From: Cephalotus follicularis
Taxonomy: Eukaryota; Streptophyta; Magnoliopsida; Oxalidales; Cephalotaceae
Assembly: GCA_001972305.1 (NCBI GenBank)
Contig: BDDD01001641.1
Span: forward strand, 62,001 to 126,000
Length of the DNA: 64,000 nt
Direction: 5' to 3'
A program made the translations under genes and the position numbers. The first letter of the stretch is position 1. Every line of letters starts with the position of its first letter. A model generated the notes under the pieces. It had not been told where the DNA came from. It was given only the letters and a program-made list of their open reading frames with translations, and made no database searches. Positions 1,343 through 64,000 of the stretch are shown here, piece after piece.

Positions 1343-1596
1343 CCAACGCTTAGTGCTCTTATCACCTGGAAATCTGACGAAACCAATCAAAGCACTAGCG
1401 CTTTGATGATAAGCGTCGCCGCTTAACCTGGTTCTAAATTGATACTAAGCGTTGCCGACACTTCTAAGAGTGGCCACCAAAGTGCTGATATATAAAGTCT
1501 CGCCACTTACACTAACTATCGCTGCTTAGTGTATTTTTCACTGAACTCAACTCAAGGACAAAACATCGCCTCTTCCATCAGAAACACCGTCGCTTA
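1343..1596 (+). repeat. Degenerate AAGCGTCGACGCTT-type array in J
   Basis: About nine diverged units in 250 bp, such as AAGCGTCGCCGCTT near 1411, AAAGCACTAGCGCTTT, ATCGCTGCTTAG and CCGTCGCTTAGG. Arms AAGCG/CGCTT recur while the centre varies. Same flavour as in C, G and B. Confidence 0.6.
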
Positions 1597-2784
1597 GGCA
1601 CTGTTTTATACAAATTAAACTAGTTTCAATCCTTTTCAAAACAACTGATCGACTGGATTATTCTGGAGATCACTGCAGCCTATTTAACATGTTTTAGCAA
1701 ATATTTGATCAATCAAACAAAAGGGATTTGAAAAGTAAAGTTTGACGGAGGTTTTCTTCCAAATGGGCCATTTGAGGCTTTTCAATTATTTTTCCTCAAA
1801 TGATCTTCTACAGGAAACTTACAAGACCCAAATAACTTTCCTTTAAACAAGTGTTAACATATTTTATATATTTATTGATCAACGGTATTAGGTAACTACG
1901 TCTGGTTAAGCTTTTATGCTTGAACCAAAGTGTAAACACCTCGCACAGGCCTTTATAACACAAAAGCTACTAGGCTGTTAAGTGATGATACTCTATATTG
2001 AGTGTCCTTCGCCTATAGTCGATTATTAGCCTAAGCATCGATCCTTGACTTAGTTCGCTAAGCCAAGTGTCGATTCTTGGAGTCTAGAATTGCCACTTGG
2101 GATAACCCTTAGCACTCGACTACTTGTTTTAAAACCATTTACATATTTTGAAATGAACGTTTGACCAGATTTCACTTGAGATCACTCGAGATCCTTTCAA
2201 ATTGTTTTCTCCTTGGTTAGGCAGGTGATGTTGATCTTTCTACAGATCAATTGATTGTATAGCACTTTCGATTGACACGTTTGGCTAACCGATCCATTGA
2301 CCAAATAGATTGCTTAACTAATTGATTTGGGTCTACGGTCCACCCGTCGACTGACTCGTCGTATTGCACGATTGTGTAGTCACATTGATATTTGATTGTT
2401 TAAGACCATGTGAGTCTCAACAACCTCTAGCCAGGTACACTTGACAATAGTGTATTTATAGATTTGCTCTATCTGGTTAGTTACTCACCTATTGACTGAT
2501 CGATCCTGTTGTACTAAATGATTGTAGAGTTGTGTCAATGATAGATTTGCATTTGATTTGACTAGATATTTGATTGGACCATAGGTACCTAGCGATATCT
2601 AGTCGTGAAGCTAGGCATTGGTTTTACTACAATTTATTCCCTCTGATTAGGTACTCATCACCTAATGGCTACTTGATTTGATTGATAATTCCTATAGAGC
2701 TACTCGTGAACCTAGTTAGGACGCAAGATAATCATTTTTGCCATATACTCCTGATTAGATCATCACAAGCCTTTGGCTACACTA

Positions 2785-3360
2785 CTATACTCGAATCCTC
2801 TGGTGGCACTTACTACTATGAACACGCTTGATGGCACTTACCGTCACATACACTATAGCTCCTGACCATTTGAGGATGTGCCTGGTTGGCACTTACCACC
2901 ATGTATGCCCACAAGTGGCACCTACCACTGTGCATGGGCTCAAGCTTCATTTACCAATGAATAGGTGCACGGTGGAACTTACCATGGGGAAGGACTACCT
3001 GACTTGGTCTAACCGATTCAAGTCTACTAGACCGGTCTAGCCGTCCTATATAAAGGATTACCCTCCGGGGGTTAGACTGCAATTTTGGTTTGACTTGTAC
3101 AAGATATAAGGTCTATACGCTCTATAGGATTTACTTGACTTGATGTGATTTGATTGATTCACTTGATTGATCTGATTTGATATACTTGAACTCTCTGGTG
3201 GCACTACTACCATGAGCACGCTTGATGTCACTTACCATCGTGTACATTATGGCTCTTGACTGGTGCACCAATTGCATTTACTACTGTAAATGTGCTTAGT
3301 CGACACTTACCACTGAGTGGGCTCTTAGTCGGCACTACCACTAAGTAGGCCTAGCAGGTT
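2785..3360 (+). repeat. Imperfect tandem duplication in J (period about 390 bp)
   Basis: The block beginning 'ctctggtggcacttactacta' near 2800 recurs near 3190 as 'ctctggtggcactactacca'. Within each copy a shorter phrase 'ggcacttaccac' is repeated several times, making a nested minisatellite. The short open frame across it is a by-product. Confidence 0.55.
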
Positions 3361-4561
3361 TAATTTATTGATTTGAATATACTTGGCCGGTCTAGCCATC
3401 CTTAGACTTCCAACATTTGATTAGACTTGATTGAAATGGGTTGAGAGTACTCACACTCTTCTATTAATTATCCCTTAGATGATTGTTAGGATTATTGTTA
3501 GATCCCACTCCTATACACCGATATGGGATGGTTATATATGACTGGAAGATCACAATTGATATTAATGCTCCTTAACATACCATACATTATTATTGTACAC
3601 TTATACCTAACATTGTGCACTTACACATTATATGATGATGCATACATGTACATAGCATAATCTACGCATGGGGATATATCAATTTGACCCTATGACTAAC
3701 CCATCCGTCGGGAAGGGGACTCTATCGTGTTACAGGTGACGCAATAGGAACCAGTTCTCAAGGGGATTGCTAGTTCCTCCTTTTCGCAACAGACTTGAAG
3801 ACTATATGATTAGACTCTATGTTTTATCTTCATTGCTTTTATTATGTATTCAACTTGTACTGTATTCGTATTGATATTGTATTGGAGCTCATGCTTGTAA
3901 TAATTATGTATGGATTATTGTTATTACTTATAGAATTTAATGAATTACATGTATTGTAATAAAGTTTTAAATTATCTAGCTTTTTAATATGGTACCTAGG
4001 CCCGACTACTGTATATTATTTGTAGATGACACGATGCAACCGGCCCTTCGGGCGCGGGACATCACACTCTCTCTACCAAATATTTTTCAAAACTTGCAAA
4101 CTTAGAACCAAAATGATTGTGGGATCAAGAGGTAGTTTATAGAAGCTAGAGACTTGAGCCTCTTCTCCTCTATCTGATAGTTTCAATGGATAAAGCTTTG
4201 AATTGAATGGTAGGAATTTCTACATCTAAAATACATTTGGAATTGATTTATTGCTTTATGATATGCATGAACTTTAGTGCCTTGATGAGAACTTGTGTAT
4301 GTATGCGATTAGGATCAATTAGAACGAATTAAAACAGATTAAATTAGATTTATTGAAAATTGACTTTTAGATCTTTTTCACTCCTTTTCAGATCTAGTGA
4401 CCTTCTAACGGTCCAAATGACTTGACCTCTTGATATGTTATCCCTAGACATGTCTAGATCTTGTCCTTAAAGTTTCATTTCAAACAGATTTAAGGAAGGT
4501 GGTTGAAACCCTAAGTTAGCTCAGATTTTAGCTAATTATATAGGTGTTGTTTTGTAGAATC

Positions 4562-4657
4562 AAGTCGACTAATATTTGACTGGAATGAGCTCACCAGTCA
4601 ACTTGTACCTTACCAGTCGACTAGTGACCCCTTATCAGTTGAGTAATAGTAGACTGG
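4562..4657 (+). repeat. Small CAGTCGACT array in K
   Basis: Units AAGTCGACTA, TTGACTGG, CCAGTCAACTTG, CCAGTCGACTAG, TCAGTTGAG and TAGACTGG within 100 bp. This is the CAGTCGACTG flavour, whereas the related C LTRs carry the AAGCGTCGACGCC flavour in the corresponding part of the LTR. Confidence 0.5.
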
Positions 4658-10847: not shown

Positions 10848-13652
10848 TGTAACGCCCGAGATTCTTGCATAATGTAATATTTGAATTTTGAATGTAATCT
10901 TATTATGGAATTAATGAGAATGACGGAATTTCTGACCTTGATGATGTTTTCTGAAATCATAATGTTGAATTTTGTAAGGAAAAATGATTAAGAAATGTTA
11001 AAGGTGCAATATAAGTCAAAACGGCGCAGTTTTAGGTTAAAAGCGTCGACGCCCTTATGAAAGCGTCAACGCCTATGGGACAAAAGCGCACATACACCAT
11101 GCACATGCACATTGATGCCTTAGAGGTAAAACGCTACAAGCGTCGATGCCTGCATGCGAACGTCGATGCTTAGAGTCAAACATCAGACATGTTTTGATGC
11201 TGACAGAAACGTGGTGCATGGGGGCCTGTTAAGGCTTTGATCAGACGCCTCACATGCGAAGGAATGACATGCTAGACATGCACCAAGCTTCCCAGGTATG
11301 CCAAGACTGATATAACATAAAGAGGGAAGGCATGTGACTGCATGCAACTGTCTTGGCAGCAAGGGGAAGGTAGCTGGTGCGCCATGCAACCAGGTGTGAA
11401 GAAGGGTTGAGGTTTGGCATTTATGCAGATGGAAACAAAAGGCTACCTGCATAAGACTCTTTGCCCTCCTTAAAACCGAACCTAGAGAAAGAAATAACAA
11501 AAAGAGACAGTGAGTGTTGATAAACAAAGTGAGAATCGGTAGAGAGAAAGGGAAGGATAAAACACTTTCCTCCATTGTTGGCCGATCAGAAGCTTGGAGA
11601 GGTTGAGGTTTGGAGCTGCTCGGACCTGGAAGCTCAAACCACCACTTTTCTAGGACTTAAAGAGGTGGACATTCCAGTTCCTAACTTGGAACAAGAGGTA
11701 GGGGAAATCTTTGTGAATTCATACATGCAAAGTTGGAATTTAAGTTACTGTTTGTCATGGCTGTTATGCATGATTTGTGCGTTAATTTCGGATTGTTGGA
11801 TTGCTAGATTGTCAAGATGTTTACTATAACCTGTAAACTGACCATGCATGTATAATCTAAGTCAATAATCGAAACTGGTTTGCATGATTATTGAGTTGTT
11901 TCCCCTGGTTTTGAATGGAACGACGAACATGGCTATACTGGACTGCCAAAGCGTCAACGCTCACGATATAAGCATCGACGCCCTCATGTGTTAAAATGAT
12001 AGACGTCGACGCTTAAATAAAACGTCGACGCCTTATGTGAATAATTGCAGAACCGTGATATCTGGTTATGGGTTGTGTGCAATGTTCACTCGTGGATTGC
12101 ATGATCAGTTCATGGTTGGTGTTTTGGTCATGTACATTGATAACCTGCTGTGCGTTTTACACTATGGAAGAACTTTTCTGGGATTGCATGTAGGTTTGGG
12201 GGTTGGATTTCCCTTTGGAATCAAGACTGCTGGGATGATATCTCATGATATCACAAAAGCATCGACGCTCCTGGGAAAGCGTCAATGCCCATAGTTCTAC
12301 TATGCCTGGGATTGAATGCACGAGACGTTGACGCCTAGAGGACATAAGCGTCGACGCCCAGCGGATAAGCGTCGAAGCTTATGCCCCTGGTTTGGATAAT
12401 TTGACCCAAATTGGATCCGTTAATTCTGAAACGACTCTAGATACGACTCTAGGCACGTTTGAGCATATGATTGCATTGCACTTGCATTTCATTGAATATG
12501 AATTGTGGATTGTTGGTTGAATCGGATTGTTACTCGCTTTAAAAATGAATTACCATTTTTAGGGAGTTGCACACATGATTTATTGCAAATCATTATTTTG
12601 TATAAACTGCTATGTTCAAACAAAAATGTAGTTTTAAAAATCGGATTTATGCATGTTTTGAATAAACATGCTGTTTAAAAGGATTGTTATATATTTTGAA
12701 TAAATATATTGTTGCAAGTATTTTATGATGTATATTTTACTTGGAAAATGGATTGTTATATATGTTTGATAAAAATATATGGTTTCAAGTATTATTTTTA
12801 TAAATGACTAGAATTGGATTGTGATTGGTTTGTGCCGTATTAGTTACGGTGGCAGAGTCGCCACTGACGCTAATAGGCGGGTTGGACTCTCGGGGCCAGG
12901 AGATGGCAAGAGGAACCCATGTGTTGTCACTTAGCCATCGTGCCAGTGACTTGGATTGTGGCCTGCTTTGAGTCGTCCGAAGTGTGGTGGCTGGAGTGAG
13001 GAGAATAGTGTCTAGGCCAGGAGTTGGCGGTGCTTTCGTAGTATTGTTGATTGGATTGTTGGATTATAGCCAATTGGCATGTTTGCTCTATTGGCAGTTA
13101 TACACGTATATACACACATATATATGTATTATTATGGAGTACAATGTATTGCATCCACGATTGCATACATTACATGTCATGCATTATCTTTAATCCCGAA
13201 TTGCACATATGACTTTACTACTTAGCCGAGTGAGGACAAAGGCTAACCCTCTACTTATCAGATTGATGAAGTTGCTTGGGCATGGACCAACATGGATAAG
13301 GAACAAGATGTAATAATGTCCTTATTTGGAACTGTAATATTTTGGATATGGTTGAACTGGCTATGTATTAAATGGTGGTTGTCCACCGTACTTATAGTTT
13401 ACTTGTTTTATGTCGTTAATGGATAATGTTTAATTCATGCTCCGTTTTGAGGGCAATCGATGATGATGTTGAGTTTTGTAATAAATTTTTTTAGTATCAC
13501 GTAATATGGGGTGCGCGATACGTGTTTAAATTCAGCTTATTTACATGATGCTTCCGCAAGTTTTAATTTATTCCTGAAATTGCATGAGCTGGATAATGTT
13601 GTTGATTGCTTTTACCACTTAAATGTTGTTTAAATGGAAACGGGGTGTGACA
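10848..13652 (+). mobile_element. G: 2.8-kb solo LTR inserted in H RNase H
   Basis: Starts TGTAACGCCCGAGATTCTTG and ends GGAAACGGGGTGTGACA. Flanks are tacag (10843-10847) and tgcag (13653-13657), one mismatch. The RNase H frame of H resumes across it (KDYDC to IIDYHPG). It shares the segment 'cttagcc-agtgaggacaa-ggctaaccc' (13219-13252) and the 'gcttccgca' phrase with F1, F2 and N, so it belongs to the same broad LTR group. No protein is encoded; frames at 11183-11575 and 11575-11829 have no recognisable domain. Confidence 0.85.
11041..12380 (+). repeat. Three clusters of AAGCGTCGACGCC units in G
   Basis: Clusters at 11041-11172, 11948-12034 and 12256-12380. Examples: AAGCGTCGACGCC (11041), ACGTCGACGCTTAAAT (12003), TAAGCGTCGACGCC (12345) and AAGCGTCGAAGCTT (12367). 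Two to five units per cluster, 20-45 bp apart. F1 and F2, relatives of G, carry CAGTCGACTG clusters at similar distances from the LTR start. Confidence 0.75.
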
Positions 13653-18238: not shown

Positions 18239-19643
18239 CTATAGGCTACAAGATGTGCATATATCCTTCAGATACCGGTACAGAGAGCCTATACCTTAGT
18301 CTTGTTCGAGGGGCCAGCATGATCAGTACGCGGACCCAGCCCTCGTCCAATGAATCTTAGCCTCATCTGAGGGGCCTGGATACACCGCAAGAACCCAGCC
18401 CTCATTCGATAATCCACAAGCCTCGCACGAGGGGCCTGCATATACCGCAAGGACCCAGCCCTCACCAAGAAATCGCGTGCAAACAGATAACCAAACACAA
18501 TCCAACAGGTGAGCAACGAAGCAGCTCTGCTGTGCTCACACTCAGCATACCATCATAGACAATAGTATACCGCAGATCCAGGATATGAATACCCGGGGGC
18601 AGTTCCCACATAACACGTCATCATAGACCAATGGGTATGCTAAAGAGAATTGAGTGTTGAACGTACACCTCACCTTGGACTGGTAGGTATCATATATGAC
18701 ATAGCTCAGAGTGCCAGCAATAGAGTACAAATACAATATCATTATTTCAATGATACATCAAAGCAGGAAGGTGACATAGTCACTCAGAGTTTGAGCCTCA
18801 TATGCTTATAATATCATATCACAGTCGACAATCATACTCAACATAAGACATCCGGGATTCAGATCCTGATCAAATCATCAATAACACAAGTACTACATGG
18901 CACATATCAAACAGGAGTCTCAAAATAAATAAAATGAAGGGAATGTCCCACTCACAGTTTTACTGCAAATTACTACCGTAACTAGCCTCACGATGCTCCA
19001 GACAAGCTATAGGGTCCACGTATTATTACATTAGAAGGGTGAAGGATGAGTCATTTCCACACTTATTTTTCATATGGAGTTCTTGGAGAAGTGAAGACGA
19101 AAGTGAGAGCTCACAAGAGATGAATGTTTCAACAAAGCAAGAAAGGGAGAATGTCCTTTGTTTCCTTTTTATAAACCTCATACTTGATTAGTGATGAATA
19201 ATCTAGAATCTTTGAGATACTTAGAGACAAATTTGGATATTTCAGGACTTATGTAAGTAATTGGGCCAAATCTTTGTGTCTTACCGAATCTTTGGGCCTT
19301 CAGCCTGCTTAAATCATTTATCGTCAATCCACTCCAAAGCAGCCCTACAATTCCACTTGCTTCCTAGTCAACTGTTCACTGTTAAAAAGAATGTTTTAAA
19401 ATTTATAGCCGCAAGTGCACGGATCATGTAGTAACGGGTCGAACGCAGGGAAACGTAAACTAGTTGTAATTTATCCAACCTAGGCGAAGTATACCAATTT
19501 TTGAGATAAACTAACAAACTAATGAATAAAAGATAACAAAATATAATTAAAAAGCGGAAAGAAAAGAAAAATGCATGATCACACAAATATAAGAAACAAT
19601 GCAATAAAATAAAGAACAAAGGGGTAGGGTTTACCGAATATGA

Positions 19644-21509
19644 TCATGGAGGCTCAAAATATCGAGGCTCATGAAAGTCCATGGCCTCTTCAATCAATGC
19701 AGCTTTAAATTTGAAAAACGTTAGTGCTCGCTTCTTTTTCACTTCGAACGCGTCTCCAACACCTGTCTTAACAGACTCAAAAACACCGCGTGAAGGCATA
19801 GGTTTAATAATATAAGCATCATCCCAAAAAGTTTTCCACCAATAAAAGCCATCATTAGAACAAGAACATTTGAATGCATCACCTAAGCCTATCTTAGCAA
19901 CCTTACACATATAATGGGAGAAAGCAATTTTTACAATTTTAGAACTATCCCAACACGATCTCCACAAGTAGAAACCATCAAGAGAATCACAAAAATCGTG
20001 GCCAACCAACCAATTACACACATGGTCCATACGAGTGCACACCCTCCATCCTAATTGATCTTGAGTAAAGAAAAAGTTATTTTCGAGGATGGTGTGAGGG
20101 TGGGATGGCGTGCTAAGTTTGTGAGTGAAATGGGACAGATCATCCCATTGAACTTCCAAAATCGAATCAACGTCCTCATCGTCCAACCAACTCAGAATTT
20201 CCTTTTGCGTAACCTCTAATTCCTCGAATTCTCTCAAGCATTCCATGAAGTTGTTCTCAAAATCTACGTCAAAGTACGTTTGGTCAGGCGTGGCCAGTTT
20301 GTGTGTGTAATGGGATAGATGATCCCATTCACTATCCGACGTTGGCTCATTAAGCTTACTTTCTAACTATGCTAACGCTTCCTCGTTTTCTAGCCACTGC
20401 AATCTATCCTTTTCGGTAGCTTCCTCTATCTCTAATTCTCTCCTGGAATTGCGATCAAAGTCGATATTAAAATAAGAATCAATGGTATCAGGAATCGAGC
20501 GAATCACGTAGACATCATCAAAGTCAGATTGATGCTTTCCCAAACGAAAAATGTTAAAGTCCATCGATGCCTTTCCAAAACTCAACTTCATGAGACCATT
20601 TCGGCAATTAATTAATGCATTACTTGTGGCCAAGAATGGTCTACCAAGGATAACTGGGATTTGGTCTTTTATATTCACAACAGGCTGGGTATCTAATACG
20701 ACAAAGTCAACAGGAAAGAAAAACTCACCAACCTTTATCAAAACATCCTCAATTTTTCCTCTTGGTACTTTTACCGACCTATCAGCTAATTGCAAAGTCA
20801 TATTGGTCGGACGCAACTCTCCTAAACCTAGTTGCTCAAAAACTGATGAAGGCAACAAATTCACACTTGCTCCAAGATCGAGCAAGGCATGGTCGATTTT
20901 GGTGTCGCCAATAACACAAGAGATTGTCGGGCAGCCAGGATCTTTATACTTTCGCATCGTGGGTTGCGAAAAAAGTGCACTAATGTTGGCTACCAAGAAA
21001 GCCTTTTTCGGAGTCTGAAGGATCCTCTTTTTAGTGCATAAGTCTTTAAGGACTTTTGCGTAAGAAGGAACCTGCTCAATGACTTCAAGCAATGGGATAT
21101 TGATTTGAACTTGTTTAAATGTATTGATGATCTTTTCCATTGCGGGGGCTTTCTTATCTAATCTCTTTGGAAAAGGAACTGGTGGGTCAAATGAACGCTT
21201 GGGTATTTCCTTTAATTGTTCCTTTTCCTCTTTTTCTTTCTCTTCCCTAACTTCTTGCACATTCAAATTTGTTGGTTGCGCAAAGGAGTCAACCAACTGT
21301 TCTTTTTATTTTTCATGTGCAAATGACTCAACCAACTCCTCGCTCGAATTCTCTGTTTTATCCGCTGGTTGGTACTCACTTCCACTTCGTAGGGCGAATG
21401 CTTGATCGGATGGTCCGGAAGAAGATGAGCATTGCGGATTAGATTGCGGTTGGATACGATCGGGCTGAATCATATTCGTCCTAGGATTCGGTTCGGGTTG
21501 GGAAGGCAT
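19644..21509 (-). pseudogene. Athila-like gag-C/protease frame with unusual W-rich C-terminus (in I)
   Basis: One reading frame of about 620 codons, starting MPSQPEPNPR at 21509 and broken by two in-frame stops: TAA at 21306 and TAG at 20367. The first part has the gag-C phrase FALRSGSEYQP. The middle is a typical Athila/Tat protease: CPTISCVIGDTKIDHALLDLGASVNLLP (catalytic Asp near 20879), LQLADRSVKVPRG, then VILGRPFLATSNALI. The last third is not RT: it holds a repeated 'W-D-LSH-THKL-TP' phrase and WWKTFWDDAYIIKPMPSRG, ending HEPRYFEPP. I do not recognise this last module. A TATA box lies about 200 bp upstream. Confidence 0.7.
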
Positions 21510-21702
21510 CTTCCCTTTTTCTCTTGTAAAACAAATAAAATATTCAAGGATTTTTATTGATGGAATTGAAACAATAACAATCTAGGTTTTGTTCTAACCC
21601 AAAACCCTAAAAACTAGTTATGAAACATAATGAAAATTAAACTAAGGAGGGAGGTGGCTACTTCCACAGACTCTCTGCCCTATTTGGCCGAAATAACATT
21701 GT

Positions 21703-21710
21703 TTATATAC
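21703..21710 (-). promoter_or_regulatory. TATA box of element I
   Basis: Minus-strand GTATATAAAC, about 195 bp before the ATG at 21509 and about 85 bp downstream of the palindrome array. Confidence 0.5.
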
Positions 21711-48720: not shown

Positions 48721-49553
48721 TCACTCCCCTATTACAATCAAAATAGATAAAATAGTGTTTCGTTCTAAACCTCTCAAAAAGTTGGATATTACAAGATGAA
48801 ATCGCTCAATTTAAGTGGGAACAAATATAGGTTAAGATATAAGACAAATGCTTTTGAGATGAACTTTGATTTTGAATGCTTGTGGTATGTTTTCTTGAAT
48901 GATCTTTGTATTTGATGTTACTTGTGTTCCTGTTCTTCTTCTCTCTTCAAAAACCTTTGTATATATATCTTTCTTGCCTCAGAGATCCGTTAGGTATGTC
49001 TTGAAACTTGTTGCGTAAAAAACGGCGCATTAAAACTCTGTCAGAATTCTTTTCAGCCGTGAAAAGCGTCGACTGTCTCCCTCAAAGCGTCGCTGCTTAT
49101 ATGACCGTTAGGTATTTTAATTTGAATTTGTCGAGTCAAAGCGCAGGCGGTCTGGATGTAGGAGTACACTGTTGCCTCAAAGCGCTGACGCTTAGTGTTG
49201 AGCGTCGTCGCTTGTGACAAATTGATTAGATCAAGAAGTCTCTGTTTATAAGCGCTGACTTGAGGTCTCAAAGAGCTGACGCTCTGAGTTAAAGCGCAGA
49301 CGCTTATAATTAGGCGTCGACGGTTTGAACATTTGTTCCTCTCCTCAAAACACTTCAACGGTAGACACTTTGTTCATTGTCTCGACTGTTGCACAAAGCG
49401 TCGCCGCTTTATTTCTGAGTGTCGACGCTTTATCCTGTTTCTGCAGTTTTTCGTGCTGTTTTACGCATTCCATGTTTTTCTTGCACATAAAGAAACTTGG
49501 TTAAATACAAATATGTTATCATCAAAACTAGGATTGAGACATAAATGTCAACA
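48721..49553 (-). repeat. 3' LTR of B, truncated
   Basis: Matches 61600-62413 of the 5' LTR. It stops at 'tcactcccctattac', where M sequence begins; the R/U5 end is gone. Confidence 0.85.
49062..49432 (-). repeat. AAGCGTCGACGCTT array in the B 3' LTR
   Basis: About twelve units, such as AAAGCGTCGCCGCTTT, AAAGCGCTGACGCTTAG, GAGCGTCGTCGCTT, AAAGCGCAGACGCTTAT and TGTCGACGCTTT. Arms AAGCG/CGCTT are kept; the 4-base centre varies. One unit near 49200 is absent from the 5' LTR. Confidence 0.85.
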
Positions 49554-50145: not shown

Positions 50146-51399
50146 TTAGTCATTCATTTGAGTGTCTTCGTTTTCACCACCGATCTCTCCCTCCAAGTCA
50201 TCGGTTACTCCATCATCTTGGTGAATGTCATCGTTGTCGTGGCTCGAGGAGGAGGAAATGAGACCTTCGTAGTCCATTATTCCCGTTTCAGCGAACTTCT
50301 TTGCCATTCTCTTTTGTCTTCTTTTAACCGATTGCATATTCATTTTTATTTCTTTGACATTTTGCTGTAGTCCCTTAATCGCATCCAATATCTCTTCTAG
50401 TTTGTTTCTTGGGAGGTTGATATCCGGTGTTTGAGCAGCTTGAGGTTCTCTTGGTACATTTTGTGCTTCATCGCCCATTTCTGCCTCTCCCTCTTCTTCA
50501 ACGACTCTATTTGAGTCCTCTTCTCTTGGGATCCAGGTTCCAAGCCGTTTGTGCTTTTTAAACCCCATACTTCCTAGGGTTCCTTTGCCTAACTTGTCAA
50601 CACCCTGGAGTGGATGATTTATTTCTCCAGTTAGGTCAATTACGAAGAATTTGAGGATTTTGGTAATGATGTTGCTATAACCTAATCTGGCATTCTCTCG
50701 GTCATGGATTGCATGCATGTGATTAATTATCAAGAAAGGCACATTAATTCTTTTGCCTGTGATTAGGTGATACATAGTATATGCCTCCATGTGGGTTACC
50801 TCATCGAACCCACCAGCCTTAGGCAAAATATGTGTGCATACAGCACGATGTAGGAACCTATAATGTAGACTGAGGTTCCTAGTGTACATTCGCTGTAGAA
50901 AATCAGCATCATTTTCACCAAAAAGAATTCGTACACAATCCTGTCTATCAAAATCTCTACTTGTCACACAAGTTCTTTGGTTCCATCCCCTAGCACCATC
51001 ATTCGGAACATTTAGGATTGTGGCTAGTGTGTCTACTTCTAATTCAATTCCCTTGTTTTTGACCATAGTGCTTAATTCTACCATCGAGCTACTTAGAATG
51101 TAAACATAAAATTCCTTAATTAGCTAAGGATAGCTAGGTAAATTGATTGAAAATAAGGGTTCTAACCCTTGAGCACTTAGCCACTCTATAATGAGAAAAC
51201 CCTCATTATTGCAGAAATCGAAATCTAATACTTTGCCTACTAGAATCTTGCGATTAAAATAGGCTTCAGGATACCTAGGGAGTGAAGAAGCAACCTCTGG
51301 TGTGGCTGGATGAGCGTCTATGCCCTTCCCTTTGCGCCCAACAGATTTCCTTTTTGTTTTAGACCCTTGTCCAGCTTCAATACTCTTGGTTCTTGGCAT
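50146..51399 (-). pseudogene. ORF3 of B, 'putative plant transposon protein' type
   Basis: A 418-codon frame after pol, starting MPRTKSIEAGQG at 51399 and broken once by TAG at 51126-51124. The basic N-terminus (KTKRKSVGRKGKG) looks like a nuclear signal. It continues with RYPEAYFNRKIL and FNNEG-type sequence, the 'LIKEFYVYI' motif after the stop, and LHYRFLHRAVCTHILPKAGG...MYHLITGKRINVPFLIINHM. The end is acidic with a coiled-coil-like helix (LEEILDAIKGLQQNVKEIKMNMQ). This matches proteins annotated in plants as 'putative plant transposon protein'; function unknown. I chose ATG 51399 because the longer frame upstream runs through the palindrome array. Confidence 0.7.
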
Positions 51400-51513
51400 C
51401 TTTGATGTTAGTTTGAGATTTATCAAGAATTTTAGAATGTAATGAGGCACAAAATCACCAGAGACAATGAGTTTAGAGTTAGGGTTTTGAGTTTTCGTGT
51501 GAAAATGGCTTGA

Positions 51514-51654
51514 CAGACGACGCTTTCTGTCTAAAAACTCGACTAAAGCGTCGACGGAGTAGAGGGAGGCATTGGCGCTTTGACTACTTTCCCTAATTCG
51601 AGCCCTAATTTTTGTGTAAAGCGCTGACGCTTTAATGACAGGCGTCGTCGCTTT
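51514..51654 (-). repeat. AAGCGTCGACGCTT array in front of B ORF3
   Basis: Five units: AGACGACGCTTT, AAAGCGTCGACGG, GGCATTGGCGCTTT, AAAGCGCTGACGCTTT and AGGCGTCGTCGCTTT. It lies 115-255 bp before the ORF3 ATG; the gap contains AAACCCTAA (telo-box-like) near 51480. Same flavour as the LTR array of B. Confidence 0.75.
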
Positions 51655-53053: not shown

Positions 53054-53056
53054 GAT

Positions 53057-53793
53057 TTCCAATTTTCTTCTTATAGGTGTGCCTCCAACGGATCTATTTT
53101 TAAAGGTCTGTTACAAATCCAGTCGGCTGGATTTATACGGCAGTCGGCTGGATTGATGGCGCGTATATTTGAATATAGCCGTTGGTGGTGGACAGTCGGC
53201 TGTCTCCTCTGGGCAGTCGACTGGTGGAGCTGGCAGTCGACTGGTTGCTCTGTTCCAGTCGGCTGTTGAGCTGAAATTGTAATTACATATGCTACTGCCT
53301 GATTTTGCACAATTGAAAACAATAAGCTGGATTCACTGGCAGTCGACTGGACCCCCTAGCAGTCGACTGGTGCCCTGCTTCAGTCGGCTGGATTGGGTGT
53401 TAAAAAGATACAGAAGCTACTGCCTGAAATGTGCACCCATGGCAGTCGACTGGTGTCCTGTGGCAGTCGGTTGTCTTGGCCTGGCAGTCAACTGGACCCC
53501 TGTGGTAATCGACTGGATCTGTGTTCCTGCAATTTCTGTGTTTGGTTGAAGAACCAGTCGGCTACACAACCTCTGGCGGTCGACTACACAACCTTGGGCA
53601 GTCCACCGGATTGCTTGCCAGTCGGCTGGATTGGCCTGTATCTGCAAAAATGTTCTTGGCACAACTTTGGACATAAAATCAAGTGAGTATATGAAGTTAT
53701 AACTCAAGGAATTATGCATACAAGTAATCTATGTTTGTTAATCATCAAAATAACATATGGTGATGCAATAAATCGGGGTGGCAAAGGCCAACA
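53057..53793 (-). repeat. 3' LTR of A, truncated
   Basis: Minus-strand start TGTTGGCCTTTGCCACCCCG after the PPT; matches 58766-59501. Homology stops at 'ttccaattttc', where B RT sequence begins. The array at 53120-53628 (18 unit positions) is more eroded than in the 5' LTR. Confidence 0.85.
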
Positions 53794-54524: not shown

Positions 54525-55679
54525 TCAAGAGGGAGGAGGGTGCTGTGGGAAAGCATTTTGAAACATCTGGATGATATTTGCTTGTCCCTGAAGGAGATCG
54601 GCTTGACCCTGAAGGATATTGGCTTGACCTTCACTGAACTGGTTCATTTGCCCTTTAAGATATTCAATGTCGGCTTGAGCAAGATCCATCCTAGCCTGAA
54701 GTGACTCCAGGGTAGGCCTGCTACTGCTGCTGCTCTGGCCAACACTCGGACGCACCTCAAACTACTGAGGATCGTCCACATCATCATCCTCATCATCTCC
54801 TGCTCTTACATTGGCTTGCTCTCTTATTTGCTCTCTACCTCTGCCTTGTAACTTGACCCACTCACCATCCTCAAATATAATGTTACAAAGTCTAAGCCCT
54901 GCCTTATTCACCAACTGCTTATGGGAAGGTTTGACACTTTGCTCATCATCAGGAATATCAATGTTCAGTGATGCAAGGACAACCATAATGATCGTACTGA
55001 GAAGCATAGGATAAGGAGTGTGATTTGGTCGAGATAACAAGTGGTTGACAATAAGATAAGGAAGGTTAATTGGAGTTCCATTCTTAACACAAGCGACAAA
55101 TTTAAGGTCTCGCTCAGGAGGAAGAGTGTGCGAGCCTTCTCTTGGGAGGAATGTGTTTGTTACAAGTAGGAGAATGATCCTAGAGGCAATAGGCAAATGA
55201 CTACTAGTCACATTCATAAGAGGATTGACATTTGGTTGTTCTAAACAAATTCTTAGGGCCTCCGTTTTTCCAATATCATTAAAATGAGTAATTCCCTCAT
55301 TAGGAATTCCTAAGGTTTCAGCTATCAAATCAGGAGTAATTGATATAGGAGTGCCTAAAACAAAGGAATTTGCAATGCAAGTGGTGGAAGACTCTAAATT
55401 AGCATAGAATAGCTTCACTAACCTAGGGTATATGATATGAGATGACAAAAGGTAATCAAACCAACCCATAGTTTCTAACCAAGTCATGACAATGGCTAGA
55501 TTGCTAATAAGAACATACCTAGATAACCATTTCTCAAAATGTAGCTTAACGGAGCTAAAAATTGAGTTATACCTCATCTCTTTCTCTTCGGAGAGAAAGA
55601 GTGTATTGTCGTAGTCTAGCTCCACTTGTGATGCCCTTTGTTGCCTAGAAGCCAAATGCTTTTGTCTCTTTGGTCCCAT
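54525..55679 (-). pseudogene. ORF3 of A, 'putative plant transposon protein' type
   Basis: A 385-codon frame starting MGPKRQKHLASRQQR at 55679, with one in-frame TAG at 54764-54762. The N-terminus is basic. The body contains WLETMGWFDYLLSSHIIYPRLVKLFYANLE, typical of 'putative plant transposon protein' sequences, then TPDLIAETLGIPNEG and SRIILLLVTNTFLP, with an acidic stretch (DDEDDDVDDP) before the stop. After it comes a coiled-coil-like tail with repeated QGQANI/QGQADL units. It differs strongly in sequence from B ORF3 but has the same order. I chose ATG 55679 because the longer frame upstream only crosses the array. Confidence 0.75.
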
Positions 55680-55792: not shown

Positions 55793-55864
55793 CAGTCGAC
55801 TGGCCCACTAATGGCAGTCGACTGGATGGCAGGCAGTCGATTGGACAAATTGTCCAGTCGGCTG
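55793..55864 (-). repeat. CAGTCGACTG array in front of A ORF3
   Basis: Four units in 72 bp: CAGTCGACTG twice, CAGTCGATTG and CAGTCGGCTG. It ends 114 bp before the ORF3 ATG. A TATA-like GTTTTATACCC (about 55766-55776) and a CT-rich stretch follow before the ATG, giving a promoter-like layout. Confidence 0.8.
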
Positions 55865-56104: not shown

Positions 56105-57600
56105 TTATCTCCGCAAAGTGCAGAATCTTTCATTGTCCAGCGGCTTCATGAATATATCTGCAACTTGGTTCAAAGTGTCAATATATTCAAGGAAAATATC
56201 ACCCTTTTCAACATGATCTCTAAGAAAATGATGTCTAATTTCAATATCCTTAGACTTAGAGTGTTGAACGGGATTTCTACTCAAGTTGATAGCACTAGTA
56301 TTATCACATTTTATACATACATTGCTAATGCTAATTCCGAAGTCACAAAGTTGTTGCTTAAGCCACAAGACTTGTGCACAACAACTTCTGGCCGCTACAT
56401 ATTCGGCTTCGGTGGTTGATAGAGCAACACTCTTTTGTTTCTTGGAGAACCAAGACACTAAAGAATTGCCAAGGAATTGGCAAGTGCCACTAGTGCTCTT
56501 TCTATCTAGATTGCAACCACCATAATCAGCATCGGAATAAGCATGCAAATTAAACAATGAATCATGCGAATAAAACAATCCTAATAATGGTGTGTATGCA
56601 AGATATCTAAAGATTCGCTTAACCGCGGTTAAGTGAGATTCTTTAGGTGATGATTGATACCTAGCACAAAGACATACACTAAACATTATGTCCGGTCTAC
56701 TAGCGGTAAGGTAAAGTAGAGATCCTATCATGCTTCTATAGAGTTTTTGATCTACCTCTTTACCATTCTCATCGTTGTCAAGTTTGGTAGTAATGCTCAT
56801 TGGTGTCTTGCAAGGCTTTGAGTGTTCCATTCCAAATCTTTTGAGTAGATCATTGGTGTATTTGGATTGGTTGATGAAAGTCCCTTCATTTCCTTGTTGG
56901 ATTTGAAATCCAAGGAAATACTTGAGTTCTCCCATCATACTCATCTCGAATTCACCTTGCATAGTGTTAGCAAACTCAACACAAAGAGAATCGTTAGTAG
57001 NATGTAATTTAAAACCTTTAAAACAAGCAAAGGCCATTAACAATCTAATAGCTTCTAGTCTAGCTACCGGAGCAAAGGTTTCATCATAGTCAATGCCTTC
57101 CTCTTGACTATAACCTTGTGCAACTAATCTAGCTTTATTTCGAATAACTAACCCATTTTCATTCATTTTGTTTCTAAAAATCCATTTGGTTCCAATGATG
57201 GATTGATTTTTTGGCCTAGGAACTAATGACCAAACATTGCTTTTGTCAAATTGGTTTAGTTCCTCTTGCATAGCTACAATCCAACAATCATCATTTAAAG
57301 CATCTAAAACATTTTTGGGTTCGATATTTGAAATAAAAGCTACATTATCGCAATACTCCCTAAGATCGGAACGAGTTCTTACCCCCTCAGTAGGATTACC
57401 GATTACCTCGTTGTCCTTTACGTACTCTCTTTCTCTTCTAGCAATTGGCTCCTTGGTGACTTGATTTTGTTGAATTTCTTCTTCATGTCCTCCTCTTTCT
57501 TCAACTTTGTCAACTTCACCATCTTCTTTGTTGATGTCCAAGCTTTCCATTTGCTCCAATATTCCTACATCATCAACAACATCTCCCTCTCGGAGCACTA
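56105..57600 (-). pseudogene. A reverse transcriptase (gapped) and RNase H
   Basis: Reads EPKNVLDALNDDCWIVAMQEELNQF, SIIGTKWIFRNKMNENGLVIRNKARLVAQGYSQEEGIDYDETFAPVARLEAIR, then a single unknown base at 57001. It resumes at TNDSLCVEFANTMQGEFEMSMMGELKYFLGFQI, so about 100 residues including the YVDD box are absent. RNase H is intact in outline: YSDADYGG, STTEAEYVAARSC, KCDNTSAINLSRNP and KPLDNERFCTLRR, then a stop a few codons before the usual end. It joins integrase through one frameshift near 57590. Confidence 0.8.
57001..57001. other. Single ambiguous base replacing the RT core
   Basis: The only N noticed in the window. Sequence on either side belongs to RT segments that are normally about 300 bases apart, and the frame is preserved across it. 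Confidence 0.9.
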
Positions 57601-58410
57601 TTAGACTCTTCAAATAAAACATGAATAGACTCTTCAATAATCAAAGTCCTTTTATTAAACACTCTATATGCCTTAGAATTTAAAGAGTAACCTAGAAAGA
57701 TTCCTTCATCACTCTTGGCATCAAATTTTTCAAGATTATCTTTCCCATTGTTTAGAATGAAAACTTTGCATCCAAAAGGTCTCAAGTGACTAACACTTGG
57801 TTTTCTTTCATTGAAAAGCTCATATGGGGTTTTCTTTAAAATTGATCTAATCATGACTCTATTTATTATATAGCATGCGGTGTTCACGGCTTCCGCCCAA
57901 AGATATTTTGGCAAATTATTTTCACATAATATGGTTCTCCCCATTTCTTCTAGGGTTCTATTCCTCCTCTCAACAACACCATTTTGTTGAGGAGTTCTAG
58001 GAGCCGAGAAGTTATGGTAAATACCTAGTTCATCACAAAAATTTTCAAAACCAAGGTTTTCAAATTCTTTGCCGTGATCACTACGTATGCTAACAATATA
58101 TAGACTCTTTTCATTTTGAATACGTCTACCAAATTTAACAAAGGAATCTAAGGCATCACTCTTTAAAGCCAAGAAAATAACCCATGTAAATCTAGAATAA
58201 TCATCAACAATTACTAAGCCATATTGTTTACCACCAAGACTTAAAGTTCTAGTTGGTCCAAACAAATCAATGTGTAATAATTGTAAAATACGAGTAGTAG
58301 AAACAACATTTTTAGCCTTGAAAGATGTTCTTGTTTGTTTGCCTTGTGCACAAGCATCGCACAATTTATCATTTTCAAATTTCATTTTTGGCAAACCAAT
58401 AACTAACTCC
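57573..58410 (-). pseudogene. A integrase, catalytic core and C-terminus
   Basis: The frame enters at ELVIGLPKMKF and keeps the CDAC of the zinc finger (the His pair is deleted). It has all three catalytic acids: Asp in LLHIDLFG (residue 43 from 58394), Asp in SIRSDHGKEF (106) and Glu in NGVVERRNRTL (142). It goes on with IMIRSILKKTPYELF-like sequence and GCKVFILNNGKDNLEKFD...GIFLGYS. Integrase would join cDNA to target DNA. The frame shifts before RT. Confidence 0.8.
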
Positions 58411-58778
58411 CCTTGAGTATTTCACTAGGTATGCCCCAATCCGGGCTTGAAACTCCAACCGAGCTTCAACAACCTTCGCTCCAACCAAGCGAATTACAAA
58501 TATGCTCCAACCGAGCAATACAAGAGACAACCTCTCTTGTATGTGTGAAAGTAATAGTTTAAAGGTTACAAATTCGTAGGAATTTGTTTTACAATATGGC
58601 TCACTTTGAACAAAGCTTCAAGTGTATAAGAAATGTAAAAATAAAGCTTTGTAATGTATAGGATTGCTTTGGATTGATCTCTTTTGATGTTTGAGAGCTT
58701 TGGGATTGTACTTGAGATAGCTTGAAAGAATATGCAAATTGAATGCTTGATCACTTGTGCAAGAGTTCCAATTTTCTT

Positions 58779-58828: not shown

Positions 58829-59336
58829 CAGTCGGCTGGATTTATACGGCAGTCGGCTGGATTGATGGCGTGTATATTTGAATATAGCCGTTGGTGGTGG
58901 ACAGTCGGCTGTCTCCTCTGGGCAGTCGACTGGTGGAGCTGGCAGTCGACTGGTTGCTCTGTTCCAGTCAGCTGTTGAGCTGAAATTGGAATTACATATG
59001 CTACTGCCTGATTTTGCACTATTGAAAACAGTCGGCTGGATTCACTGGCAGTCGACTGGACCCCCTGGCAGTCGACTGGTGCCATGCTTCAGTCGGCTAG
59101 ATTGGCTGTTAAAAAGATACAGAAGCTACTGCCTAAATGTGCACCCATGGCAGTCGACTGGTGTCCTGTGGCAGTCGGCTGTCTTGGCCTGGCAGTCGAC
59201 TGGACCCCTGTGGCAGTCGACTGGATCTGTGTTCCTGCAATTTCTGTGTTTTGTTGAAGAACCAGTCGGCTACACAACCTCTGGCAGTCGACTACACAAC
59301 CTTGGGCAGTCGACTGGATTGCTTGCCAGTCGGCTG
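58829..59336 (-). repeat. CAGTCGACTG array in U3 of A
   Basis: Eighteen units in 508 bp, about half perfect CAGTCGACTG and most others CAGTCGGCTG. Spacing runs from 9 to about 45 bp without a fixed period. Reading through the units gives the long repetitive open frames on both strands, which are not genes. Confidence 0.9.
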
Positions 59337-61941: not shown

Positions 61942-62292
61942 AAAGCATCGAGTGTCTCCCTCAAAGCGTCGCCTCTTATATGACCGTTAGGTATTTTAAT
62001 TTGAATTTGTCGAGTCAAAGCGCAGGCGTTCTGGATGTAGGAGTCTACTGTTGCCTCAAAGCGCTGACGCTTAGTGTCAAATTGATTGGATCAAGAAGTC
62101 TCTGTTTATAAGCGTTGACTTGAGGTCTCAAAGCGCTGACGCTCTGAGTTAAAGCGCAGACGCTTATAATTAGGCGTCGACGGTTTGAACATTTGTTCCT
62201 CTCCTCAAAACACTTCAACGATAGACGCTTTGTTCATTGTCTCGACTGTTGCACAAAGCGCTGACGCTTTATTTCTGAGCGTCGACGCTTTA
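61942..62292 (-). repeat. AAGCGTCGACGCTT array in U3 of B 5' LTR
   Basis: About eleven units with conserved arms AAGCG and CGCTT around TCGA, CTGA or CAGA centres, ending GAGCGTCGACGCTTTAT. Confidence 0.85.
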
Positions 62293-62792
62293 TCCTGTTT
62301 CTGCAGTTTTTCGTGTTGTTTTGCGCATTCCATGTTTTTCTTGCACATAAAGAAACTTGGTTAAACACAAATATGTTATCATCAAAACTAGGATTGAGAC
62401 ATAAATGTCAACAGTTTTGAAAGGGCAGATCCCAATATATTTATGATTCATGCTTGTTGATATGGTTGAGGCAGAGCCCAACCCATGCATGTTTATTAGT
62501 TTAAACTGTTGATTTCTCCTTCGGGAGTGTGGTTTGTTGAGGGCTGAGCCCGTTTATAAAATATGTTTTTCTTTACAGGGGGCATAGTCCGATAAACGGA
62601 TACTACATGCCCGATTTTCGTAAAATTTTAAGAGTTGGAAAAATTTTCAGCTTTTTGGAAAAAGTTCAAGTTATGATTATTTTTATGGTTTTAAGAAGTT
62701 TTCAAACAGGTTTTAAGATATCACTTGGATGTTTCCGAAAGGAGGCTTGTCATGTGATTGTCACATCTGTCTCGGTTGGGACGGGTGTGACA

Positions 62793-62987
62793 ACGGTTAT
62801 TTCATGTGTCATAAGAGATTCGAGTAATTCCTCCAACGACAGTTCATTGAGATTTTTAGCTTCTCAATAGCAGTGACTTCAGGCATCCAACTTTTGAGTA
62901 AACACCTAAGAATTGTTTTCTTATTAGGAGCTTGCAAAGAATTAATAATATTGGTGAAACGAATATACATGCGTGAAATAGTTTATT
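62793..62987 (-). pseudogene. L gag, N-terminal-side fragment
   Basis: Reads MYIRFTNIINSLQAPNKKTILRCLLKSWMPEVTAIEK, then after a frame change AKNLNELSLEELLESLMTHEI, a UBN2-type copia gag closely similar to B gag. It joins the fragment at 46049 across M; F3 cuts it on the other side. Confidence 0.75.
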
Positions 62988-64000
62988 TGTAATAACCGCA
63001 ATTTGTAATTCATGTATATTGTACCCTTGATGAATAAAATATGCACTTACATTGAATTTCAATGTCCAATTGTTATATGAATTGTGGTTGTGGATTTTAA
63101 AAGAGGGAATAAGTAACAAACCAAAACCAGCCTCAAACAGCCGACTGTCAAAGGGTAACAACCGACTGTTGTGGTTCATGGAGTGACAGGCGACTGTCAC
63201 AGGGCAACAGTCGACTGGTCTGGCTCAGACAGGTGTCTGTGCATGGCGTGAAACAGGGCATGGCAGATGATGACAGGTGTTCTAACCGTATCATGCATGA
63301 GAGATGCGTGTCACTAGCTACCTTAACATGCAAGGGTGGTGCCTTGTATGTGCTCTATCTCACCTGCAGGCCTGCAACCTGCAAGATAGAAATTGAAAGA
63401 AGAAAGTGAGGAACATGCATGTAAGAGAGAGAGGAAGCAAATGCTGGGTTTTTAGTTATGGAATCTGCCGAATCCTTAAGCTTTAGACCTTCTATATATC
63501 AGCTGTGAAGAGCTTGATTTGAGTGTTAGGAAACACTGAGGAGAGAAAATAGAATGAGAGAATTGTTGGAGCTTTCATGTTGATAGTTGGAGTTGCAAAG
63601 GGAGAGTGAAGCTTTAAATCTTACTGGTAAGTCACCATCTCGAATTAGTACTGATATAAAGGTTGTTAGTGAATCAAACACTGATGATTAGCTATATGTA
63701 TCCACTGTTAAACATAACCTTGGAACTATAGTCCTGGAATTAGAATGGGAATGAAGGTTGGTTAAATGTGGAGCTAGAGTAAAGATATTTCACTAAGCTA
63801 CTGGTTGGATTATAGTTGTTATCATGATTAGATAAACAAAACAACTTACTGGTTTTAATGTGTATGCATGCAAACATGCAATTGTATAGATTAACCTACT
63901 GAAATCGGAAAGTTTGTGTGGAGTTGGGACTTGGAACTCAAAGAGAGGAATCAACTCAATTTGATTCCGGGATAGCATTTGAGGTAGGGGTATTGACATG
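62988..64000 (+). mobile_element. F3: LTR of the F family, cut by the window edge
   Basis: Starts TGTAATAACCGCAATTTG and follows F1 and F2 to the window end; about 1 kb is visible. A TATA-like CTATATATC lies near 63492. Whether it is a solo LTR or the 5' LTR of a full element cannot be told. Confidence 0.8.
63138..63217 (+). repeat. CAGTCGACTG cluster 1 of F3
   Basis: Four units in 80 bp: CAGCCGACTG, CAACCGACTG, CAGGCGACTG and CAGTCGACTG, 150 bp from the LTR start as in F1 and F2. Confidence 0.8.

What the first reader, a model, noticed from the sequence alone, without database searches (positions are those of the whole stretch)
1343..63217. TCGA-centred palindrome arrays shared by unrelated LTR retrotransposons
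Clusters of 4-18 short palindromes occur in the LTRs of copia elements (A, B, L), gypsy-type LTRs (C, F1-F3, G, J, K, N) and the Athila-like element I. There are three flavours: CAGTCGACTG, AAGCGTCGACGCTT and AAAGACGTCGATGTCTTT. Units are 10-18 bp, spaced irregularly, and embedded in otherwise unrelated sequence. That the same short words recur in elements with no other similarity suggests selection or a shared binding factor rather than common descent. I know of no standard feature that names this.
Basis: partly seen in the sequence, partly recalled or inferred. Interest (0 to 1): 0.95.

Follow-up and report, generated by a model that had tools for sequence, protein, structure and literature searches.

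The report
Shared palindrome arrays in unrelated retrotransposons
In a pitcher-plant genome, retrotransposons that look like two unrelated kinds carry the same short mirror-symmetric DNA words, often in pairs two turns of the double helix apart, as if several parasites used one set of control switches; such switches are a known kind, but sharing them between kinds looks new.

Summary
Three TCGA-centred palindromes (CAGTCGACTG, AAGCGTCGACGCTT, AAAGACGTCGATGTCTTT) form arrays far above chance. The host is almost certainly Cephalotus follicularis. (a) Spacing is not irregular: many units are paired with centres 20.6-20.8 bp apart in all three flavours, although units are about 10, 14 or 18 bp long; 47 of 70 close spacings lie at 19-22 bp, null 11.1. 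(b) The feature has a name: in the two copia elements these match the "RM boxes" of Sireviruses (PMC2829016), in the LTR and just upstream of the env-position gene. New, as far as I could search: the same words fill gypsy-type LTRs, flavour 1 in Sirevirus SI and LTR family S, flavour 2 in Sirevirus SO and families T and C. The S-SI similarity vanishes when units are masked. Units mutate faster than their surroundings after insertion but are better kept between insertions of S (2 of 3 comparisons), as expected under selection in active elements. Best reading: enhancer arrays bound by dimeric nuclear factors that several lineages recruited; the factor is unknown. Limits: one 64-kb window; gypsy status mostly from LTR ends.

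The parts
53120..53628 (.). flavour 1 array (CAGTCGACTG) in the 3' LTR (about 53054-53793) of the inner Sirevirus SI (minus-strand element, about 53054-59505)
   Evidence: LTR pair; PPT
58829..59336 (.). flavour 1 array in the 5' LTR (about 58763-59500) of SI
55793..55864 (.). flavour 1 array (4 units) 114-185 bp upstream of the env-position ORF of SI, with TTTTATAC between array and ATG
54762..55679 (-). env-position ORF of SI (PF20167), ATG at 55679
56105..58421 (-). pol of SI (RVT_2, rve, retroviral SH3; two overlapping ORFs)
49064..49430 (.). flavour 2 array (AAGCGTCGACGCTT) in the 3' LTR (48721-49553) of the outer Sirevirus SO (48721-62413)
61964..62290 (.). flavour 2 array in the 5' LTR (61600-62413) of SO
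51511..51653 (.). flavour 2 array (5 units) upstream of the env-position gene of SO (ATG about 51399)
50146..51405 (-). env-position gene of SO, in two ORF pieces (51124-51405 and 50146-51123; PF20167 found in the second)
26581..28784 (.). solo LTR S1, gypsy-type ends (TGTCACACCCCG on the minus strand), TSD TTCTT/TTCTT; flavour 1 arrays 26755-26834 and 27878-27948
40442..43022 (.). solo LTR S2 (left end within about 2 bases), same family, inserted in the pol of a third Sirevirus; TSD AATTT/AATTC; flavour 1 arrays 40592-40670 and 41736-41849
62988..64000 (.). LTR S3, cut by the window end; flavour 1 array 63138-63217
29223..36834 (+). gypsy-type element T: LTR1 29223-31483, initiator-Met-type PBS 31486, internal stub 31484-32174 with a gag-like piece, LTR2 32175-34210 plus 36629-36834; TSD GTTAG/GTTAA; degraded flavour 2 arrays 29963-30193 and 32997-33122
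10848..13652 (.). solo LTR C (TGTAACGCCCG...GGGGTGTGACA, TSD TACAG/TGCAG) inside gypsy element E; flavour 2 arrays 11041-11171, 11949-12033, 12257-12380; a 65-95 bp non-array stretch shared with S
34211..36628 (.). solo LTR b (TGTAACACCCCG...GTCGTCACA, TSD ATGGA/ATGGA) inside LTR2 of T; flavour 3 array 35588-35920
19373..22289 (.). insertion a (TG...CA, TSD TCAAC) with aspartyl-protease ORF 20367-21305 (-) and flavour 3 array 21796-22085
38376..39592 (-). approximate 3' LTR of the third, old Sirevirus X, with degraded GTCGAC doublets at 21 bp (39034/39055, 39403/39424) and CTATAAAAAG downstream
465..4066 (.). probable nested solo LTR D (TGTAACGACCC...GACATCACA, CTCTC on both sides, in a CT-repeat) with weak flavour 2-like units 1338-1424 and 2033-2078

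Best explanation
The arrays are transcriptional control arrays: enhancer/promoter boxes of LTR retrotransposons, each palindrome a site for a dimer of a sequence-specific nuclear protein. Two boxes at 20-21 bp put two dimers on the same face of the helix, two turns apart, so the working unit is probably a doublet bound cooperatively. In the two copia elements they are Sirevirus RM boxes, used in the LTR and again upstream of the env-position gene. Gypsy-type LTRs in the same genome carry the same two words, so several lineages have recruited the same factor, or factors of one family with three specificities. Shown: enrichment, doublet pitch, the same dominant flavour at both sites of each Sirevirus, sharing without detectable flanking homology, conservation between insertions but not after insertion. 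Inferred: protein binding, dimer and cooperativity, transcriptional role, the factor's identity (host TF or element-encoded).
For: Mean pitch 20.8, 20.6 and 20.6 bp in flavours 1-3; 47 of 70 adjacent spacings up to 60 bp lie in 19-22, null mean 11.1, sd 3.0, largest of 20,000 trials 25 (12 array regions; 5' LTRs of SI and SO, X and T0/D left out). A looser unit list gives 58 of 88. Centre-to-centre distance stays constant while unit length (about 10/14/18 bp), and so the spacer, changes, as expected for helical phasing. Longer gaps (n=31) peak at a period of 10.5-10.75 bp, P about 0.025, uncorrected over 25 periods. SI uses flavour 1 and SO flavour 2 both in the LTR and upstream of the env-position gene, where SI has TTTTATAC between boxes and ATG. 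Between insertions of family S units differ less than the rest (S1-S2 17% v 31%, P=3e-4; S1-S3 12.5% v 45%, P=3e-5; S2-S3 28% v 41%, P=0.06); between the two LTRs of one element they differ more (SI 6.1% v 2.0%, P=0.008; SO 8.0% v 2.4%, P=0.003). Masking units removes the S-SI hits.
Against: No binding, expression or methylation data. 23 of 70 close spacings are outside 19-22 bp. Flavours are dominant, not pure: at loose thresholds 9 of 11 units in the SO 3' LTR, 7 of 10 in T1, 10 of 12 in b are of the main flavour. The TATA position in the SI LTR does not fit simply (inside the last doublet). The undoubted gypsy E lacks such arrays. Doublet partners resemble each other and each other's complement more than random units of the same array (P=0.002 and 0.0004, 51 doublets), and in flavours 2 and 3 units are less self-symmetric than they are complementary to other units, so a hairpin role is not ruled out. 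Unit ascertainment (matching a consensus) favours units in between-copy comparisons, though the same rule gave the opposite sign within elements; the three S comparisons share copies and are not independent.
Confidence: 0.62

Rival explanations
1. Exchange, not convergence: an array (or the RM module) moved once between copia and gypsy elements by template switching or gene conversion, and the spacers later diverged.
For: Identical 10-14 bp words in elements of one genome; arrays change unit number by local duplication (4 in S1, 6 in S2); best S-SI flank match 9 of 10.
Against: No hit at E up to 10 between S and SI once units are masked; flank maximum not unusual (P=0.10 S-SI, 0.40 C-SO, 0.998 T-SO, 0.98 T-C, 0.42 a-b; 500 shuffles). 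Spacers are only about 10 bp, so power against an old exchange is low.
Confidence: 0.2
2. Hairpins or small-RNA templates: two palindromes 20 bp apart pair in RNA or single-stranded DNA, and selection or host silencing acts on that structure.
For: Array RNAs fold better than shuffles (z -2.1 to -6.5 in 7 array stretches; one control -1.9). PMC10760457 (passages) cites excess small RNAs at maize Sirevirus palindromes. Doublet partners are unusually complementary (P=0.0004).
Against: Loop length would vary from about 11 to 7 to 3 nt across flavours while centre distance stays fixed; direct similarity of partners is raised too (P=0.002), which local duplication explains.
Confidence: 0.15
3. Ordinary Sirevirus RM boxes only: S, T, C and b are mis-sorted LTRs of Sireviruses or their non-autonomous derivatives, so nothing crosses superfamilies.
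For: S1, S2, C and b are solo LTRs with no coding part; T keeps only a 690-bp stub; no blastp alignment between T's gag-like piece and E's gag.
Against: Their ends are TGTAAC/TGTCACACCCCG-type, like Del (TGTAACACCC commonest in maize and sorghum, PMC4029996, passages) and like the gag-bearing N24 (TGTAATACCCCG) and gypsy E (TGACATACCCCG) here; Sireviruses SI, SO and X start TGTTG or TGTTA. T has an initiator-Met-type PBS and a weak Arc-type capsid hit (15.9 bits, cut-off 27).
Confidence: 0.12
4. Neutral tandem-repeat growth: short tandem duplication made the arrays, with no function.
For: TRF finds 19-22 bp tandems in several arrays.
Against: Between S copies spacers diverge more than units; the same words recur in LTRs unrelated once masked and upstream of the env-position genes.
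Confidence: 0.05

Closest known systems
Sirevirus repeated-motif (RM) boxes (Bousios et al. 2010, PMC2829016)
   Same: High-copy palindromes in LTRs and upstream of env, one word per element, divergent flanks. Table 3 includes TCGA-centred words (Tnd-1 ACAATCGATTGT; Vitis CGGTCGACCG).
   Different: TCGA, not CGG-CCG, core; constant doublet pitch (not described in the parts I read); present in gypsy-type LTRs, whereas that paper calls RM 'a Sirevirus specific feature', absent from its classic (copia) set.
VANC target motifs of VANDAL transposons (PMC5735166 section 10 in full and passages; PMC10398659 passages)
   Same: Dense short motifs in non-coding TE regions that differ between related TEs; an unrelated TE (AT9TSD1) shares VANC6 motifs and responds to VANC6.
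   Different: DNA transposons; motifs arrayed in the same orientation, 'palindrom' has 0 occurrences there; a binding protein is demonstrated there and unknown here.
Maize Sirevirus palindrome CACCGGACNNNGTCCGGTG also found in Helitrons (PMC10760457, passages)
   Same: One palindrome in two TE superfamilies.
   Different: Treated there as structured regions; [quoted passage not shown]
Del LTR CpG islands (PMC4029996, passages)
   Same: CpG-rich variable region in gypsy LTRs with TGTAACACCC-type starts.
   Different: 'palindrom', 'tandem' and 'repeated motif' have 0 occurrences there; no CpG island in its eudicot group.

Membership tests
Sirevirus RM boxes | Carrier is a Sirevirus: copia pol, AAAAAGGGGGAGA-type multiple PPTs, env-position gene | tested here: met
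   SI and SO: RVT_2, rve and SH3 domains, PF20167 ORF 3' of pol; PPTs at 49555, 49678, 49764 and 53795, 54052
Sirevirus RM boxes | Palindromic motif in high copy in the LTR | tested here: met
   SI 3' LTR 16 and 5' LTR 17 flavour 1 units; SO 9 and 8 flavour 2 units, looser threshold
Sirevirus RM boxes | Additional copies of the same motif upstream of env | tested here: met
   SI 4, SO 5 units
Sirevirus RM boxes | CGG-CCG core | tested here: not met
   Core is TCGA; the paper's own exception Tnd-1 is TCGA-centred
Sirevirus RM boxes | Cluster lies shortly upstream of a TATA box | tested here: inconclusive
   SO about 126 bp, X about 100 bp, SI TATA inside the last doublet
Sirevirus RM boxes | Confined to Sireviruses | tested here: not met
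   Same words in LTRs S, T and C, which lack Sirevirus ends
Ty3/gypsy Del/Tekay (for S, T, C, b) | LTR start like TGTAACACCC, 5-bp TSD, LTR above 2 kb | tested here: met
   Start exact in b, variants in S, T, C; TSD 5 of 5 in S1 and b, 4 of 5 in S2, T, C; S3 not testable
Ty3/gypsy Del/Tekay (for S, T, C, b) | gypsy pol with chromodomain integrase | not testable with these tools
   No full-length copy in the window; own-genome search did not complete (first try, last)
VANC-type anti-silencing system | Element-encoded protein binds the motifs and removes methylation | not tested
   The env-position protein is a candidate only

The most novel reading that the evidence does not exclude
The env-position protein of these Sireviruses (PF20167; basic N-terminus, C-terminal helix, no clear membrane span) is not an envelope but the nuclear factor that binds the palindrome doublets in its own promoter and LTR, in the way VANC proteins do. 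Word and protein co-diverge (the two env-position proteins are about 21% identical while pol pieces are 50-74%), and gypsy elements without such a gene have evolved the same words to ride on it: regulatory parasitism between retrotransposon superfamilies.
Probability: 0.12. Interest if true: 0.88.

Novelty: new variant of a known kind. Interest (0 to 1): 0.62.

Why it matters
RM boxes have been a Sirevirus curiosity; PMC2829016 found no common binding site for a single factor. If gypsy LTRs in the same genome independently carry the same words at the same two-turn pitch, the binder must be a shared trans factor, and the words give ready-made baits to find it. It would turn 'why do Sireviruses have palindromes' and 'what does the plant env-like gene do' into direct binding assays, and would show retrotransposons of different superfamilies competing for, or sharing, one regulatory niche.

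Tried and rejected
Chance: rejected. Irregular spacing: rejected. One homologous repeat with flanks: not found. The mean-identity part is uninformative because its shuffle keeps column composition, so I use only its maximum test. Structure of the env-position protein: the AlphaFold model of P0121 has mean pLDDT 41.5 (only the C-terminal helix near 80), so I did not search folds with it; PDB by sequence gave 9 sequences up to E 1, flagellin and PilJ at E 0.025-0.26, taken as helix-composition matches. DNA relatives elsewhere: exact doublet patterns of flavours 1 and 2 and an RT query found nothing in viral contigs. Exact-word literature search: 29 papers, 20 listed, all for CAGTCGACTG and none by title on transposons. 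Whole-genome test: the genome search 'own' did not complete (14 tries of the same request). Gag-like stub of T: blastp to E's gag found nothing. Searches for print on sharing between copia and gypsy LTRs or on spacing: (listings and starts of abstracts only, beyond the five papers named in the report); bioRxiv and most subscription journals are not held. One search was rejected for a too-short term. PMC4728375 (Bousios 2016) is not held; I know it only through PMC10760457.


Full report
WHAT WAS CHECKED. A scan of palindromic 10-mers in 1-kb windows, blind to the claim (AT-only and GC-only words skipped), gave at 4 or more copies GCGTCGACGC, CAGTCGACTG, ACATCGATGT/ACGTCGACGT and the near-variant CAGCCGGCTG, plus three minor words (ATGCATGCAT and ACATGCATGT in family S, CTACATGTAG in T). 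Windows held up to 15 copies, five Markov shuffles at most 3.

HOST. The env-position ORF 54762-55928 matches 281 proteins; the 120 listed are named Cephalotus follicularis (CFOL_v3), up to 96% identical over 55-79% of the ORF. The window is therefore almost certainly from the Australian pitcher plant. The own-genome search did not complete (14 tries), so everything below rests on one 64-kb window.

ANATOMY. The window is a nest of LTR elements. Two minus-strand copia elements, SI (about 53054-59505) inside SO (48721-62413), have RVT_2, integrase-core and SH3 domains (SO also gag PF14223) and, 3' of pol, an ORF of Pfam PF20167. CTCCCCCTTTTT-type PPTs lie repeatedly before their 3' LTRs (49555, 49678, 49764; 53795, 54052). 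These are Sirevirus traits as described in PMC2829016 (passages; sections 9 and 19 in full). A third, older Sirevirus X (pol pieces 39988-44886, PPT 39593) has an LTR with degraded GTCGAC doublets at 21 bp and CTATAAAAAG about 100 bp downstream. Four gypsy-type LTR families carry arrays: S (26581-28784, TSD TTCTT; about 40442-43022; 62988 to the window end), T (29223-36834, two LTRs, initiator-Met-type primer site, TSD GTTAG/GTTAA), C (10848-13652) and b (34211-36628, TSD ATGGA). Insertion a (19373-22289, TSD TCAAC) has a protease ORF and stays unclassified. D (465-4066) is a probable further solo LTR with weak units.

IS IT REALLY GYPSY? The ends TGTAACACCCCG (b), TGTAACGCCCG (C), TGTAATGCCCTG/TGTAACAATCCG (T) and TGTCACACCCCG (S, minus strand) resemble the Del attachment word TGTAACACCC, commonest in maize and sorghum (PMC4029996, passages). 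They also resemble two elements here with gypsy coding: E (TGACATACCCCG; gag and protease, RT) and N24 (TGTAATACCCCG; gag) (ends). The Sireviruses start TGTTG or TGTTA. T keeps a 690-bp stub whose gag-like piece reaches only 15.9 bits against Arc_capsid_dom, below the cut-off 27, and gives no blastp alignment to E's gag. Its reading as plant gypsy gag (GEAEHWW) is from recall. So 'gypsy-type' is probable for T and supported by ends alone for S, C and b. E itself has no array of the kind; its 3' LTR has 4 near-matches to GGTCGACC against 0.6 expected.

THE DOUBLET. Adjacent unit centres cluster at 19-22 bp: 47 of 70 spacings up to 60 bp (12 array regions; 5' LTRs of SI and SO, X, T0 and D not used), against 11.1 +- 3.0 when units are scattered over the same spans, largest of 20,000 trials 25. 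A looser list of 193 units, 161 of them inside the named regions and 32 outside (21 of those 32 loose flavour 3 matches), gives 58 of 88 (SI and SO 5' LTRs not counted). Word-blind pair counts peak at 20-22 bp (39 v 0.5 expected). Mean pitch is 20.8, 20.6 and 20.6 bp for flavours 1, 2 and 3, whose units are about 10, 14 and 18 bp long (letter frequencies; in flavour 3 conservation reaches +-10). The centre distance, not the spacer, is thus held constant. Longer gaps (n=31) show a weak peak at 10.5-10.75 bp, P about 0.025 before correction for 25 periods. Two turns of B-DNA is the simplest reading.

ONE MAIN FLAVOUR PER ELEMENT, SHARED ACROSS KINDS. SI has flavour 1 in the LTR and 114-185 bp upstream of its env-position ATG (TTTTATAC between); SO has flavour 2 in both places. 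Purity is high but not total at loose thresholds: main flavour 16 of 17 units in the SI 3' LTR, 9 of 11 in the SO 3' LTR, 9 of 10 in S1, 11 of 13 in S2, 14 of 15 in C, 7 of 10 in T1, 6 of 7 in T2, 10 of 12 in b, 10 of 11 in a. Between SI and SO the env-position proteins are about 21% identical where blast aligns them, pol pieces 50-74%. Flavour 1 recurs in S, flavour 2 in T and C, flavour 3 in b and a. C and S share a 65-95 bp stretch outside the arrays (74-81%, E 1e-8) yet have different flavours. Both the copia and the gypsy-type side therefore contain flavours 1 and 2.

DESCENT OR CONVERGENCE? Of 15 regions compared, the only copia to gypsy-type hits below E 0.01 are S1, S2 and S3 to SI (E 6e-5 to 5e-4); T and C gave none to SO. 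With units masked, the S-SI, SI LTR-SI pre-env, SO LTR-SO pre-env and a-b hits disappear even at E up to 10, while the within-family hits (S-S, T-T), C-S, and one 100-bp T1-b hit (67%, E 4e-4) remain. The best match of the 10-bp flanks is not above column-shuffled flanks (P 0.10, 0.40, 0.998, 0.98, 0.42 for S-SI, C-SO, T-SO, T-C, a-b; 0.83 and 0.15 for LTR against pre-env in SI and SO). Spacers are short, so an old exchange cannot be excluded.

SELECTION. Between the two LTRs of one element, identical at insertion, units differ more than the rest: SI 12 of 196 v 11 of 542 (P=0.008), SO 11 of 138 v 16 of 676 (P=0.003). Between insertions of family S they differ less: S1-S2 25 of 144 v 616 of 1975 (P=3e-4), S1-S3 5 of 40 v 404 of 897 (P=3e-5), S2-S3 15 of 54 v 373 of 913 (P=0.06). 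In the T pair, also within one element, units again did no better (non-CpG mismatch 0.204 v 0.15, not tested for significance). The units are thus mutable but kept while the lineage is active. The unit definition favours matches, yet the same definition gave the opposite sign within elements; the three S comparisons are not independent.

HAIRPIN READING. Array RNAs fold more stably than shuffles (z -2.1 to -6.5 in 7 stretches; one control -1.9), and doublet partners are more complementary (P=0.0004) but also more alike (P=0.002) than random units of their array (51 doublets). Self-symmetry mismatches are lower than cross-unit ones in flavour 1 (2.8 v 3.0) but higher in flavours 2 and 3 (4.9 v 4.4; 5.8 v 5.5). 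PMC10760457 (passages) cites small RNAs on maize Sirevirus palindromes. A fixed centre distance with a loop shrinking from about 11 to 3 nt argues against a hairpin as the primary function; small RNAs may be a consequence.

WHAT BINDS. Unknown. The env-position protein has a basic N-terminus, a predicted C-terminal helix and, in 4 of the 5 sequences scanned, no 19-residue window above 1.43 on the Kyte-Doolittle scale (SI's own copy 1.91). It is a candidate, no more. The AlphaFold model was too poor to use. The VANC precedent (PMC5735166 section 10), where an unrelated TE, AT9TSD1, shares VANC6 motifs and responds to VANC6, shows that such sharing can be functional.

VERDICT. Real and non-random. 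A known kind of feature (Sirevirus RM boxes) in a new variant: TCGA core, two-turn doublets, and the same words in gypsy-type LTRs. The sharing and the pitch were not found in print in the searches named in Tried and rejected.

Noticed in passing
6455-9173 and 16940-19372 (LTRs of gypsy E): Another palindrome-like repeat, GAGCTCTGCC, at 21-22 bp steps (6909/6930/6951; 17348/17370; other steps 40 and 62), and AAGTCTGCY repeats at 8869-9064: the two-turn pitch may be general to LTRs here, with a non-TCGA word.
   Followed up: partly
19373-22289: A 2.9-kb TSD-flanked insertion with TG...CA ends, an aspartyl-protease ORF and a flavour 3 array but no second LTR found: neither a normal solo LTR nor a normal element.
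   Followed up: partly
24896-26580: Short gypsy derivative with gag only, between about 190-bp direct repeats starting TGTAATACCCYRTACC.
   Followed up: partly
58421-58763: Sirevirus SI has only about 340 bp between its integrase ORF and its 5' LTR, and SO's gag finds no relative there: SI seems to lack gag and so to be non-autonomous, yet keeps its arrays and env-position gene.
   Followed up: no
27001-28000 and 40501-41750: A second palindrome word (ATGCATGCAT / ACATGCATGT, 4-5 copies) in S LTRs.
   Followed up: no
41736-41849 v 27878-27948: S2 has 6 units where S1 has 4: array growth by local duplication of unit plus spacer.
   Followed up: partly
50146-51405 and 54762-55679: The Pfam PF20167 'putative plant transposon protein' sits in the env position of both Sireviruses and looks soluble or nuclear rather than membrane-bound.
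   Followed up: partly
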